From Solirubrobacterales bacterium (lineage in GTDB: Bacteria; Actinomycetota; Thermoleophilia; Solirubrobacterales; Solirubrobacteraceae), in contig JAFAZV010000082.1 in the NCBI GenBank assembly GCA_019239445.1, positions 1 to 47,975 on the forward strand: a DNA stretch of 47,975 nt, read 5' to 3'. Below, one piece after another: positions 43,199 through 47,975 of the stretch. The notes under the pieces are model-generated. The model ran no database searches. It saw only the letters and a list, made by a program, of their open reading frames with translations, and was not told the origin of the DNA. Made by a program: the position numbers and the translations under genes. The stretch's first letter is position 1, and every line of letters starts with the position of its first letter.

Positions 43199-44725
43199 TT
43201 GCGCCAGCTGACCAGCCTCGACGCGCAGTTCCTTGCCCTCGAGAGCTCCCGTCAGGCGGGCCACGTCGGCGCCGTCGCCGTGCTGGACCCAAGCACGCGT
43301 CCCAATGGACGGCTCGAGCTGGCCGATATCCACAACATGATCGCCGAGCGGCTGCCCCTGCTGCCGCCGTTCCGCTGGCGCCTCAAGCAGGTTCCGCTCG
43401 GGCTCGACTACCCGTACTGGATCGACGATCCCGACTTCGATCTCGAGTATCACGTGCGCGAACTGGCGCTAGCGCCGCCGCCGACGGACGAGAAGCTGGC
43501 CGAGCAGGTGGCGCGGATCTTCTCGCGCCCGCTCGATCGCACTCGTCCCCTGTGGGAGGTCTACGTCATCCATGGCCTGGCCGACGGGCACGTGGCCGTG
43601 ATGACCAAGATCCATCACGCCGTGATCGACGGGATGTCGGGAGCGGAGATCATGGGCGTGCTGCTCGATCTCTCGCCCGAAGGTTGGGAGCTCCCGCCCG
43701 AGCCACCGGAGACGATGGGCCTTCCGGAGCGCGATCCCGGTGAGGCCGAGATGCTCGTGCGCGGGGTGCTCGGGGCGCCGCGCTACGGCCTGCGCGTGGC
43801 TCGCGCGCTGCCCTCGACGCTGCCGAACATCGAGGATGTCGCCGTGTTCGCGCAGCTGCCGGGAGTGAAGACGCTCGGGCGCACGTCGGCCCGGCTGGCG
43901 CGGCTGCTGCGCGGCGGTGAGCCGCGCGTGCTCGAGCACACCGATCTCACGCCTCCGCGCACGTCGTTCAACGGCCGTGTGTCCCCGCACCGGCGCTTCG
44001 CCTTCGGAGCGCTCGGGCTGAGCGAGGTCAAGGCGGTCAAGAATGCGCACGGCTGCACGGTCAACGACGTCGTCTTGTCGGTCTGCGCCGGCGCGCTCAG
44101 GCGCTGGCTGATCGAACACGACGATCTGCCCGACGCACCGCTCGTCGCGCAGGTACCCGTGTCGGTGCGGAGCGAGGAACAGGCCGGCACCTATGGCAAT
44201 CGAATCGGCATGTTGAGCGTGCCGCTGTTCACGAACGTGGATGATCCAGTCGAGCGCCTGCGGCGCACGCACGAGGCGATGCTGCTGGTCAAGGAGCGCC
44301 ACAAGGCAATGCCGGCCGACCTGCTCCAGGACGCAACCCAGTTCATCCCGCCGGCGGTGTTCGCGCGGGCCTCGCGGATCACGTTCTCGCTCGCCGCCGC
44401 GCGCAAGCCGATCTGGAACCTCGTCGTCTCCAACGTTCCTGGGCCGCAGCTCCCGCTCTACATGGCGGGCGCCCGGCTGGTGGCGAACTACCCGGTATCG
44501 GTGATCACCGACGGCATGGGGCTCAACATCACGGTCATGAGCTACGAGGGCCACCTCGATTTCGGGATCGTGGCCGACCGTGAACAGATGCGCGATGTGT
44601 GGAAGCTGATCGGCTGGCTCGGCGAGAGCCTGGAGGAGCTGTTGCCGGTCGACGAGGTTCCCGCGGCTCCGGCGGAGGCCCGCGCCGCCGCCGCACACGA
44701 CACCGAGGACGCGGCCGCTACCTGA
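43199..44725 (+). CDS. WS/DGAT wax ester synthase / acyl-CoA:diacylglycerol acyltransferase
   Basis: A 508-residue enzyme started at TTG 43199 with GGAGAGGG upstream. It shows the family opening LTSLDAQFLALES, the catalytic motif KIHHAVIDGMSGAEI (HHxxxDG) at about residue 140, and the conserved VNDVVLSVCAGALRRWL and PIWNLVVSNVPGPQLPLYMAGA segments. It makes triacylglycerol or wax esters from acyl-CoA at the inner membrane surface. Its stop overlaps the stop of the convergent cupredoxin gene by eight bases. Relevant to the OBAP-like gene at 19410 and the patatin/acyltransferase pair at 29-31 kb. Confidence 0.95.
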   Translation: MRQLTSLDAQFLALESSRQAGHVGAVAVLDPSTRPNGRLELADIHNMIAERLPLLPPFRWRLKQVPLGLDYPYWIDDPDFDLEYHVRELALAPPPTDEKLAEQVARIFSRPLDRTRPLWEVYVIHGLADGHVAVMTKIHHAVIDGMSGAEIMGVLLDLSPEGWELPPEPPETMGLPERDPGEAEMLVRGVLGAPRYGLRVARALPSTLPNIEDVAVFAQLPGVKTLGRTSARLARLLRGGEPRVLEHTDLTPPRTSFNGRVSPHRRFAFGALGLSEVKAVKNAHGCTVNDVVLSVCAGALRRWLIEHDDLPDAPLVAQVPVSVRSEEQAGTYGNRIGMLSVPLFTNVDDPVERLRRTHEAMLLVKERHKAMPADLLQDATQFIPPAVFARASRITFSLAAARKPIWNLVVSNVPGPQLPLYMAGARLVANYPVSVITDGMGLNITVMSYEGHLDFGIVADREQMRDVWKLIGWLGESLEELLPVDEVPAAPAEARAAAAHDTEDAAAT

Positions 44726-46295
44726 TCACCCGGAACACGCCTCGCATGAAGGGGTGGATCCGGCAGAAGTAGGTGTAGGTGCCCGGCTTCAGGCTCGTCG
44801 GCGTGCTCCAGCTCAGTTTGCCCACGGCGGGCGTGTCGGGCCCGAGCTGACCGGAGTCGTAGTTCCCGGCGCCGTTGGCGAGCGGATACGAGATGCCGGT
44901 GTCCAGGCCGCACGGGTACTGGCACGCCGTGACGCTGTGGAAGATCGAGTGGATGTAGTCGAGGAACGTCGCTGGTGCCGGCTGCCCCGGCAGCGGGAAC
45001 CCCAACTTGCCGTCTGCGAGCGAATCGTCGTTGACGAACGTCAGGGATTGGCCGCGCCGGATCGTCGGCGTGCAGCGATCGCTGCCGGTCGAGGCGAAGT
45101 CGCCGGGGGTGTAGCGGAACCCCCCGATCACGACCTTGTGGGTGAAGCAGGTGCGGAACTTGCTCAGCTTCACGTTCAGCTGCTGGGAGCCACCATGGTG
45201 GTTGTTCTCGGCCAGGTGACCGTGGGTGACGTGGTCCTTCTGGTCGAGGCGATGGCTGAATGGATCCGTGCCGCTCTGATCGTCCCACGCCTCCCAAGCG
45301 ACCATGATCCCCATCGACTCATACCAGGAGGCGCGCTTGGTCTCGTACGTGGCGCTGATTCGCAGCGTGTCGCCGGCATTCAGATGGGGGCGCCAGTCCG
45401 GCGCCGTTGCGCCCATCGCCATGTCCCACGAGATCGGCCCGCGGGGATCGAAGTAGTGCGCAAAGGAGCGGAACAGGCGGACCGAGTTGGCAACGGGTCC
45501 GCGGATCGCGCCGCCACGCGGCGTGGCACCGGGACGGATCAGGTCGAGCTCGTCGTAGAGCCCGCCGGGATGCACGTGCCCTGCGGTCCCCACCAACGTG
45601 CCGGGGTGGTCGACCGTGAACTGGTTCAGCGGCGGGCCGCCGTGGTAGGGGTTCTTCGCCATGTCCGGGTAGGTGAACTTGCCGTTCTGGCCGCTGTAGC
45701 GGTGGACGTCGAAGACCGGGTAGATGTGGTGCGATTGGACGTCCATCCAGATCGGGTGGACGGGCTTGATCCTCGCGGCGTCGGGGGAAGAGGCGGGGAC
45801 GAAGTCGATGTCATAGGTGATGTAGACCCGCGCCGGCTGCGATGTCAGGTCGTGGATCATGTAGTTGAGGACCCAGAAGTCGTTCTTGCCGATCGGATAG
45901 CCGTAGCCGCGCGGCATCTCGTAGACCGTCTTCTCCTCGCCGGCCGCCATGAACGGGTAGAAGCTCCGCGTGTAGCCGTTGCCCTCGCCGGCGCCGGCCT
46001 GCCCGTTGCTCAGCCACACGCCGTGGTGGAGGTGGACCACGTCGACCCGGGGGATCGAGCCGCAGCACTTGCCGTTCGGCAGTGCGTAGTGGAGGTTCGG
46101 CGCCATCCGGACCATGAACCCGTCCTGATGCGGCTTGGGCACCTGGTTGGTGTCGAGCAGGATCAGGTTCGCGCCTGGCGTGATGTTGTACGGGCCGGCG
46201 TGGAAGTGCAGATGCTGGACGCTGCCGGCGGCACTCGCGAGCGACGGGATCGCCAGGGCGATTAGGACCACGGCACCGACGACGACTCGTTTCAA
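44718..46295 (-). CDS. Large secreted copper-binding protein with a C-terminal plastocyanin-like domain
   Basis: A 525-residue protein started at TTG 46295, which sits four to eight bases after a GGAGG site; the longer frame in the track is rejected. The signal peptide is VVVGAVVLIALAIPSLASAA. A large His-rich middle region has VDVVHLHHGVWLSNGQ and AGHVHPGGLYDELDLI. The C-terminal 110 residues are plastocyanin-like: IFHSVTACQYPC supplies the first His and TYFCRIHPFMRGVFRV the Cys, His and Met of a type 1 copper site. Compared with small plastocyanins there is an insertion of about 30 residues before the first His. Electron carrier or copper scavenger outside the cell. Confidence 0.8.
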   Translation of the reverse strand: MKRVVVGAVVLIALAIPSLASAAGSVQHLHFHAGPYNITPGANLILLDTNQVPKPHQDGFMVRMAPNLHYALPNGKCCGSIPRVDVVHLHHGVWLSNGQAGAGEGNGYTRSFYPFMAAGEEKTVYEMPRGYGYPIGKNDFWVLNYMIHDLTSQPARVYITYDIDFVPASSPDAARIKPVHPIWMDVQSHHIYPVFDVHRYSGQNGKFTYPDMAKNPYHGGPPLNQFTVDHPGTLVGTAGHVHPGGLYDELDLIRPGATPRGGAIRGPVANSVRLFRSFAHYFDPRGPISWDMAMGATAPDWRPHLNAGDTLRISATYETKRASWYESMGIMVAWEAWDDQSGTDPFSHRLDQKDHVTHGHLAENNHHGGSQQLNVKLSKFRTCFTHKVVIGGFRYTPGDFASTGSDRCTPTIRRGQSLTFVNDDSLADGKLGFPLPGQPAPATFLDYIHSIFHSVTACQYPCGLDTGISYPLANGAGNYDSGQLGPDTPAVGKLSWSTPTSLKPGTYTYFCRIHPFMRGVFRVIR

Positions 46296-46396
46296 CTGTT
46301 CCTCCAGCAGCGTAGGAAGCGCCTCCGGCGGGGATTGAAGCACGTTTGCCCGCGGCCCGGCGGAGGTGAGCGAGGATGAGGTTTGCGTAGGTCTTC

Positions 46397-46474: not shown

Positions 46475-46723
46475 TTACCAGGCCTGGGTGTCGCCGCAGA
46501 GCGGGCAGCCGACCGAGGTCGAGACCGGCGCCTCGAACACGAAGCCGCAGCCGCAGGTGTAGAGCGCCTGGTCCTGCGGCGAGCCGAGCTCGCGCCGGCG
46601 GCCGTGGGGATGCTTCGCGGCCGGCGCCTGGGCCGGAGCGGTGGACCCCGGCAGCGCGCGCCCTGGGTGCTGCCGCGGCCGGCGGCCGGTCCGCATCTCC
46701 GCTGGTTTCGTTTTGAGCCTCAC
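46475..46723 (-). CDS. Small zinc-ribbon protein
   Basis: An 82-residue protein from GTG 46723, with AGAGGT upstream. The first 50 residues are basic and proline-rich, likely disordered. The C-terminal 28 residues form a zinc ribbon: YTCGCGFVFEAPV and SVGCPLCGDTQAW, giving CxC and CxxC pairs that resemble rubredoxin-like or rubrerythrin-tail ribbons. A role in metal or nucleic-acid binding is possible. Confidence 0.7.
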   Translation of the reverse strand: MRLKTKPAEMRTGRRPRQHPGRALPGSTAPAQAPAAKHPHGRRRELGSPQDQALYTCGCGFVFEAPVSTSVGCPLCGDTQAW

Positions 46724-46892: not shown

Positions 46893-47297
46893 ATGGACCC
46901 AAGTCGCAAGCGTGTGATCCGCCTCGTCGTCGCCCTGACGGCGGCGCTTCTGCTGGCCTCGGCGCTCGTGTGGACGAGTTTCAGCGCCGGGCGGGACGAG
47001 GTCACGGCGTCACAGCTGCTGGCGCGGGCGCACCCAGGCCAGTCCTACATCCTCGCCGGAACCGTGCTCGACGGCTCGGTGCGCCATCAAGGCGAGGCCC
47101 TGCTGTTCCGGGTCCGCGACCCCAAGCTCAAGGTCTCCGTCCCGGTGCGCTACACAGGTGTGGTGCCAGATCCGTTTCGCGCCGGGCGCGGGGTCCTGGT
47201 GACCGTCCATCAACAGGCGAGCGGCTTAATCGGTGAGCAGGACTCGCTGACGACGAAGTGCCCGTCGAAGTATCAAGCCGCGAGCTCGTCCTACTAG
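46893..47297 (+). CDS. ccmE: Cytochrome c maturation heme chaperone CcmE, Cys-type
   Basis: A 134-residue protein. Residues about 8-28 are the single membrane helix, followed outside the membrane by an OB-fold core: SYILAGTVLDGSV, LLFRVRDPKLKVSVPVRYTGVVPDPF (split here) and GRGVLVTVHQQ. The usual heme-attaching His motif (H-x3-Y) is replaced by CPSKY at about 123-127, the C-x3-Y variant reported in some archaea and sulfate reducers. It hands heme to CcmF for attachment to apocytochrome c. The ccmF start follows the stop with no gap. Confidence 0.88.
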   Translation: MDPSRKRVIRLVVALTAALLLASALVWTSFSAGRDEVTASQLLARAHPGQSYILAGTVLDGSVRHQGEALLFRVRDPKLKVSVPVRYTGVVPDPFRAGRGVLVTVHQQASGLIGEQDSLTTKCPSKYQAASSSY

Positions 47298-47975
47298 ATG
47301 GCGCTGGTCGGTAGAGCACTGCTGATCCTGGGGCTGCTGGTGGCCTTGTACGGGATCGGCGCGTCGCTGTACGGCGCGCGGGCGCGCCGGCCGGAATGGG
47401 TCGACTCGGGACGACGGGCCGTGTACGCGCTGGCGGGCGTGACGGTGCTCGCCTTCGCGATCCTGGAGGCGGCGTTCCTGCGCTCTGACTTCTCGTTCAA
47501 CTTGGTCGCCGGCCACTCGTCGACGACTACGCCGGCGTTCTACAAGGCCACCGCCGCCTGGTCCTCCCAGGAGGGGAGCCTGCTCCTGTGGGTGTTCCTC
47601 CTCTCGCTGTGGTCGAGCTTGATCCTGTTCCTGACTCGAAATCGCGTACGCGAGATCGCGCCCTACGCCACCGCGGTGCTGCTCGGCTTCGGCGCGTTCT
47701 TCACCGCCCTGATGGTGTTCCTCGCCAACCCGTTCGCGACCAGCGCCAATCCGCCGGTCCAGGGTGCCGGCCTGGATCCGCTGCTACTTCACCCGAGCAT
47801 GATGTTCCACCCCCCGATGCTCTACTCGGGCTACACGCTGCTGACGGTGCCATTCGCGTTCGCGCTCGGCGCGCTCGTGAGTGGACGGCTCGGCTCGGAA
47901 TGGATCTCCGTCACCCGGCGCTTCGCGCTCGCGGCGTGGCTGTTCCTGGGGATCGGGATCCTGCTCGGCGCGCGC
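47298..47975 (+). CDS. ccmF: Cytochrome c heme lyase subunit CcmF, N-terminal part (runs off the window)
   Basis: 226 codons are open to the end of the window, starting at ATG directly after the ccmE stop. The first helices are ALLILGLLVALYGIGASLYG and LAGVTVLAFAILEAAFL, and the conserved periplasmic features are WSSQEGSLLLWVF and LLLHPSMMFHPPMLYSGY. These are CcmF hallmarks. With CcmE it makes the core of System I c-type cytochrome maturation. The ORF track does not list it because no stop is present. Confidence 0.92.
   Translation, partial: MALVGRALLILGLLVALYGIGASLYGARARRPEWVDSGRRAVYALAGVTVLAFAILEAAFLRSDFSFNLVAGHSSTTTPAFYKATAAWSSQEGSLLLWVFLLSLWSSLILFLTRNRVREIAPYATAVLLGFGAFFTALMVFLANPFATSANPPVQGAGLDPLLLHPSMMFHPPMLYSGYTLLTVPFAFALGALVSGRLGSEWISVTRRFALAAWLFLGIGILLGAR

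What the first reader, a model, noticed from the sequence alone, without database searches (positions are those of the whole stretch)
46893..47975. Cytochrome c maturation by System I with a Cys-type CcmE in an apparent actinobacterium
Most actinobacteria with known systems use System II (ResB/CcsA). This window has ccmE-ccmF, and CcmE ends in CPSKY rather than the His-x3-Tyr motif. The Cys-x3-Tyr variant is described mainly from archaea and sulfate reducers, so its presence here is of evolutionary interest.
Basis: partly seen in the sequence, partly recalled or inferred. Interest (0 to 1): 0.58.

Follow-up and report, generated by a model that had tools for sequence, protein, structure and literature searches.

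The report
Cysteine-type heme chaperone in Solirubrobacterales
This soil actinobacterium attaches heme to its cytochromes with the multi-gene 'System I' machinery, whose heme carrier CcmE uses a cysteine instead of a histidine; this is a known variant (System I*) that turns out to be common in this part of the Actinobacteria, so the finding is real but not exotic.

Summary
Window 46893-47297 encodes a CcmE (PF03100, 50.6 bits) with TKCPSKY in place of HxxxY. It is followed directly by the first 226 codons of ccmF, cut by the contig end at 47975. The organism is a Solirubrobacterales MAG (Thermoleophilia). The same bin holds ccmA-ccmB-ccmC-ccmD-hemA-hemC and a ccmG-ccmH pair on other contigs, and no ResB. 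Two closed Conexibacter genomes show the same layout, so the system is complete and not accompanied by System II. What does not hold is the rarity: CcmE is found in 257 of 300 Thermoleophilia genomes and 187 of 397 genomes across Actinomycetota. The Cys type is the rule in Thermoleophilia; His-type CcmE forms a separate clade in other actinobacterial families. A 2011 review already names this variant System I*, including CPSKF forms and co-occurring CcmH. New here are the taxonomic extent and the finding that in Solirubrobacterales the motif's last residue (the proposed heme ligand) toggles between Phe and Tyr: CPSKF in 53 sampled genomes, with five changes forced by supported branches. The bin is mixed: it also contains a second ccmE-ccmF at 77% nucleotide identity.

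The parts
46893..47297 (+). ccmE, periplasmic heme chaperone, 134 aa, hydrophobic N-terminal stretch (presumed membrane anchor), C-terminal CPSKY motif
   Evidence: PF03100 50.6 bits; 23 close relatives with the same motif; PDB CcmE chains matched (8ce8_E 1.1e-4; 2kct_A only 0.04)
47259..47261 (+). Cys123 codon, presumed covalent heme attachment residue, at the position of E. coli His130
   Evidence: profile alignment to the E. coli HDENY motif; function inferred from D. desulfuricans and M. acetivorans work (PMC3601427, PMC9084895)
47271..47273 (+). Tyr127 codon, at the position of the proposed axial heme ligand; Phe in most sampled Solirubrobacterales
47298..47975 (+). ccmF, N-terminal 226 codons (cut by the contig end); His at the E. 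coli H173 position present (SMMFHPPML)
   Evidence: PF01578 53.8 bits, TIGR00353 E 9.9e-46, alignment to E. coli CcmF

Best explanation
The window end holds the start of a ccmE-ccmF-ccmI-like operon of a complete cytochrome c maturation System I of the Cys-CcmE type (System I*). CcmABCD, encoded elsewhere beside the heme biosynthesis genes hemA-hemC, exports heme and loads it onto Cys123 of CcmE. Holo-CcmE passes heme to CcmF, whose WWD-type heme-handling segment and four heme-ligand histidines are conserved in relatives. CcmF attaches it to apocytochromes kept reduced by a thioredoxin-like CcmG and a short, NrfF-like CcmH. Shown by sequence: the genes, motifs and synteny, and the absence of ResB. 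[quoted passage not shown] This is the ordinary cytochrome c maturation route of Thermoleophilia, not an isolated acquisition.
For: CcmE and CcmF by Pfam and NCBIfam. Own bin: ccmA, ccmB (PF03379), ccmC (PF01578), a CcmD-like 74-aa ORF overlapping the end of ccmC and hemA/hemC on C132; ccmG-ccmH on C445; a full ccmF on C379. ResB absent. Conexibacter DBS9H8 and S30A1 (closed) have ccmE-ccmF-ccmI-like, ccmG-ccmH and ccmABCD-hemA-hemC. CcmF H173, H261, H303, H491 and a WGGYWxWD segment are conserved in relatives. CXXC is present in CcmG and CcmH. Cytochrome c domain matches exist as substrates. Class-wide CcmE 257/300 and CcmH 243/300.
Against: The bin is contaminated (6.94%) and holds a second ccmE-ccmF at 77% nucleotide identity, so contigs C132 and C445 cannot be assigned with certainty to the window's organism. 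The CcmD-like ORF matches no CcmD model and rests on position, length and phmmer similarity. CcmI-like is an inference from position and a weak TIGR03142 hit in one relative. I found no biochemistry for any actinobacterial CcmE in the papers searched.
Confidence: 0.92

Rival explanations
1. The ccmEF locus is a horizontally acquired, degenerate or orphan remnant in a lineage that really uses System II.
For: The contig ends inside ccmF; one family of the class (f9) does use ResB; the CcmE tree places families f6 and f8 apart from the other Thermoleophilia, so some transfer within the class is possible.
Against: No ResB in the bin; a complete ccm set in the bin and in two closed relatives; CcmE of the order Solirubrobacterales groups together with related families of the class; 86% of the class has CcmE.
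Confidence: 0.03
2. This is the minimal System I* of archaea and Desulfovibrio, working without CcmH and CcmG.
For: Same CPSKY motif; the 14 Desulfovibrio-type control genomes with CPSKY have no CcmH.
Against: The own bin and both closed relatives have CcmH and CcmG homologues; in Actinomycetota, 28 of 32 CPSKF-type rows and 22 of 56 C...Y rows are in CcmH-positive genomes.
Confidence: 0.05

Closest known systems
System I* (Cys-CcmE variant Ccm system, Allen 2006 / Goddard 2010, reviewed in PMC3601427)
   Different: Here CcmH and CcmG homologues are present, ccmABCD is split from ccmEF and linked to hemA-hemC, and the host is an actinobacterium. The review already says about a third of Cys-CcmE bacteria have CcmH.
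Canonical System I (E. coli ccmABCDEFGH)
   Same: All components have counterparts; CcmF histidines and CXXC motifs of CcmG and CcmH conserved
   Different: Cys instead of His in CcmE, short CcmH without the C-terminal CcmI-type half, dispersed gene clusters
Archaeal CcmABCEF (Methanosarcina acetivorans, PMC9084895)
   Different: The archaeal system lacks CcmD, CcmH and CcmI and in M. acetivorans has a split CcmF; here CcmF is one protein and CcmD-like, G and H proteins are present

Membership tests
System I (Ccm) | CcmE and CcmF homologues | tested here: met
   PF03100 50.6 bits; PF01578 and TIGR00353; full CcmF with CcmF_C in the second locus L087
System I (Ccm) | CcmABC heme exporter | tested here: met
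   L088: CcmA TIGR01189 119 bits (below its 131.6 cut-off), CcmB PF03379 81 bits, CcmC PF01578 84.6 bits; same cluster in closed relatives
System I (Ccm) | CcmD small membrane protein | tested here: inconclusive
   74-aa ORF overlapping the end of ccmC, conserved in both closed relatives (phmmer 4e-17, 2.7e-22), but no CcmD model match
[quoted passage not shown]
   CPSKY in the E. coli HDENY columns
System I* (Cys-CcmE) | No CcmH (original 2006 definition; no longer held as characteristic in the 2011 review) | tested here: not met
   CcmH PF03918 76 bits in the own bin and present in closed relatives
System I* (Cys-CcmE) | Covalent heme bound to the Cys of CcmE | not testable with these tools
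   needs heme staining and Cys mutants
System II (ResB/CcsA) | ResB homologue | tested here: not met
   0 matches in the own genome; weak ResB hits elsewhere in the class mostly lie in ccmF beside ccmE

The most novel reading that the evidence does not exclude
In Solirubrobacterales the position of the heme-ligating tyrosine of CcmE has toggled repeatedly between Tyr and Phe while the attaching Cys stayed fixed. The lineage would then be a natural experiment on whether the tyrosine ligand matters, with Phe seen mostly in genomes that also have CcmH, so CcmH might relieve the need for the ligand.
Probability: 0.2. Interest if true: 0.45.

Novelty: new member of a known kind. Interest (0 to 1): 0.3.

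Why it matters
Reviews list System I for Gram-negative bacteria, archaea and plant mitochondria and System II for Gram-positive bacteria (PMC3601427, PMC3884852). The survey shows that both Cys- and His-type System I are widespread in Actinomycetota and that Cys-type System I is the normal route in Thermoleophilia. Conexibacter strains with closed genomes therefore offer a bacterial model in which a Cys-CcmE occurs together with CcmH and CcmG, unlike Desulfovibrio and archaea, and sister lineages carry a natural Tyr-to-Phe change at the proposed heme ligand.

Tried and rejected
Tested the original rule 'Cys-CcmE means no CcmH': it holds in the 14 Desulfovibrio-type control genomes but fails in Thermoleophilia, Hydrogenedentota and Gemmatimonadota, and the 2011 review had already dropped it. 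Tested whether Phe at the last motif position depends on CcmH: all 11 CcmH-less actinobacterial families sampled have CPSKY, but the phylogenetically independent pairs are too few to test it, so this is not claimed. Considered that the second CcmE in the bin (C379) might be a paralogue: at 77% nucleotide identity, with its own ccmF and ccmI-like gene, it is better read as a second species in the bin. Weak ResB hits of 18-24 bits across the class were set aside because most lie in the ccmF frame beside ccmE. In-frame TGA codons flagged in eight actinobacterial CcmH matches looked like possible selenocysteine; reading them showed intact CXXC and the TGA at the ordinary end of the gene, so rejected. 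The 2006 and 2010 primary papers on the variant were not held in the library; their content is taken from PMC3601427 and PMC9084895.

Full report
What is there. The window is contig C169 of a 4.32-Mb, 462-contig bin (92.5% complete, 6.9% contaminated) and ends at base 47975 inside ccmF. ORF 46893-47297 is CcmE (PF03100, 50.6 bits) ending in TKCPSKYQAASSSY; Cys123 and Tyr127 lie in the columns of the His and Tyr of the E. coli HDENY motif. The ORF from 47298 to the contig end is the N-terminal 226 residues of CcmF.

Which organism. The 23 best relatives of the CcmE (63-84% identity) are all titled Solirubrobacterales, Solirubrobacteraceae, Conexibacter or unclassified Actinobacteria/Actinomycetes, and all 23 carry CPSKY.

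Is the system complete. The bin has ccmA, ccmB, ccmC, a CcmD-like ORF, hemA and hemC in one row on C132 (L088), ccmG and ccmH side by side on C445 (L089), and a second ccmE-ccmF-ccmI-like operon on C379 (L087) that is 77% identical in DNA to the window's. The second copy most likely comes from another species in the bin, so the assignment of C132 and C445 to the window's organism is inferred. Two closed Conexibacter genomes remove most of that doubt: both have ccmG-ccmH about 7-9 kb upstream of ccmE-ccmF-ccmI-like, and ccmABCD-hemA-hemC elsewhere. CcmF has the histidines that correspond to E. coli H173, H261, H303 and H491 and the WGGYWxWD segment (only the first falls in the window part). ResB is absent from the bin and, by matching sizes and CcmH E-values, from the two closed genomes. 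Five cytochrome c domain matches show that substrates exist.

How common. Among 300 Thermoleophilia genomes at least 80% complete, 257 have CcmE and 243 CcmH. Strong ResB matches are confined to family f9 (17 genomes, none among the CcmE-positive ones) and four other genomes. Across 397 Actinomycetota genomes, 187 have CcmE (135 of 241 genera) and 127 have CcmH. Of about 130 actinobacterial CcmE read, 36 are His-type, 32 C...F-type and 56 C...Y-type, with a few tandem CP(D/S)KL paralogues in family f8. Apart from one row in G567 that falls beside the E. coli protein and is probably contamination, the actinobacterial His-type sequences form one supported group (99% SH-aLRT). The premise that actinobacteria normally use System II is thus not a good description of the phylum.

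CcmH. Cys-CcmE was first described together with the absence of CcmH. The 14 Desulfovibrio-type control genomes in my set indeed have none, whereas Cys-CcmE genomes of Thermoleophilia, Hydrogenedentota and Gemmatimonadota have it. The FEBS Journal review of 2011 (PMC3601427) already states that about a third of Cys-CcmE bacteria contain CcmH, that Chloroflexi and Firmicutes have the variant, that 25 of 36 have CPSKY and that four have Phe instead of Tyr. I therefore do not claim the co-occurrence or the Phe form as new.

Tyr and Phe. In families f1-f4 (the window's order) I read 53 CPSKF and 9 CPSKY, plus the 23 CPSKY relatives of the window. On a tree built without the motif columns, five changes are needed and all five are forced by supported branches. 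With the other Thermoleophilia families as outgroup, the simplest history is one change to Phe at the base of the order and four returns to Tyr, one of them in the window's lineage. [quoted passage not shown] The tree rests on only 128 columns, and the direction of change is not proven.

Mechanism. By homology (inferred): CcmABCD exports heme and attaches it to Cys123 of CcmE; CcmE hands it to CcmF, which joins it to CXXCH motifs reduced by CcmG/CcmH. The clustering of ccmABCD with hemA-hemC suggests joint expression of heme synthesis and export; this was not tested.

Verdict. Real, well supported, and a new taxonomic placement of a known variant (System I*). Interest is moderate to low. The useful leftovers are a Cys-CcmE system with CcmH in actinobacteria that have isolates, and the natural Tyr/Phe toggling at the ligand position.

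Noticed in passing
L090, L091, L094, L098, L100 (family f8 of Thermoleophilia): Tandem CcmE pair: one CPSKY copy and one paralogue with CPDKL or CPSKL that forms its own clade (99% SH-aLRT); families f55 and f71 have a similar second copy with CPDNY or CPENY.
   Followed up: partly
window 46475-46723 (-): Small zinc-ribbon-like ORF (CGCGF...CPLCG) divergent from ccmE; found near ccmE in 15 of 23 close relatives, weak zinc-ribbon Pfam hits only.
   Followed up: partly
window 44718-46342 (-): Probably secreted protein with a cupredoxin-like C-terminus (YFCRIHPFMRGVF, possible type 1 copper site) beside ccmE; homologue in L011 (61% over 541 aa), Pfam hit only at E 0.06.
   Followed up: partly
L089:1854-2333, L018:998-1471, L022:3039-3548: CcmH of the window's bin and of both Conexibacter relatives has CPSCH or CVSCH, a CXXCH that mimics a heme c attachment motif; other Thermoleophilia sampled have CPTCN, CVVCR, CPTCK and similar.
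   Followed up: no
L087 (G000:C379) versus window 47024-47975: The bin contains a second ccmE-ccmF operon at 77% nucleotide identity, so two related species are probably mixed in this MAG.
   Followed up: partly
L088, L257, L258: ccmABCD is directly followed by hemA and hemC, linking heme export genes with heme biosynthesis genes.
   Followed up: partly
L039, L031 (public MAG records): A MAG titled Acetobacteraceae (L039) holds a CcmE nearly identical to that of actinobacterial family f6, and one titled Bifidobacterium breve (L031) holds a Thermoleophilia-like CcmE: probable misbinning or mislabelling.
   Followed up: no
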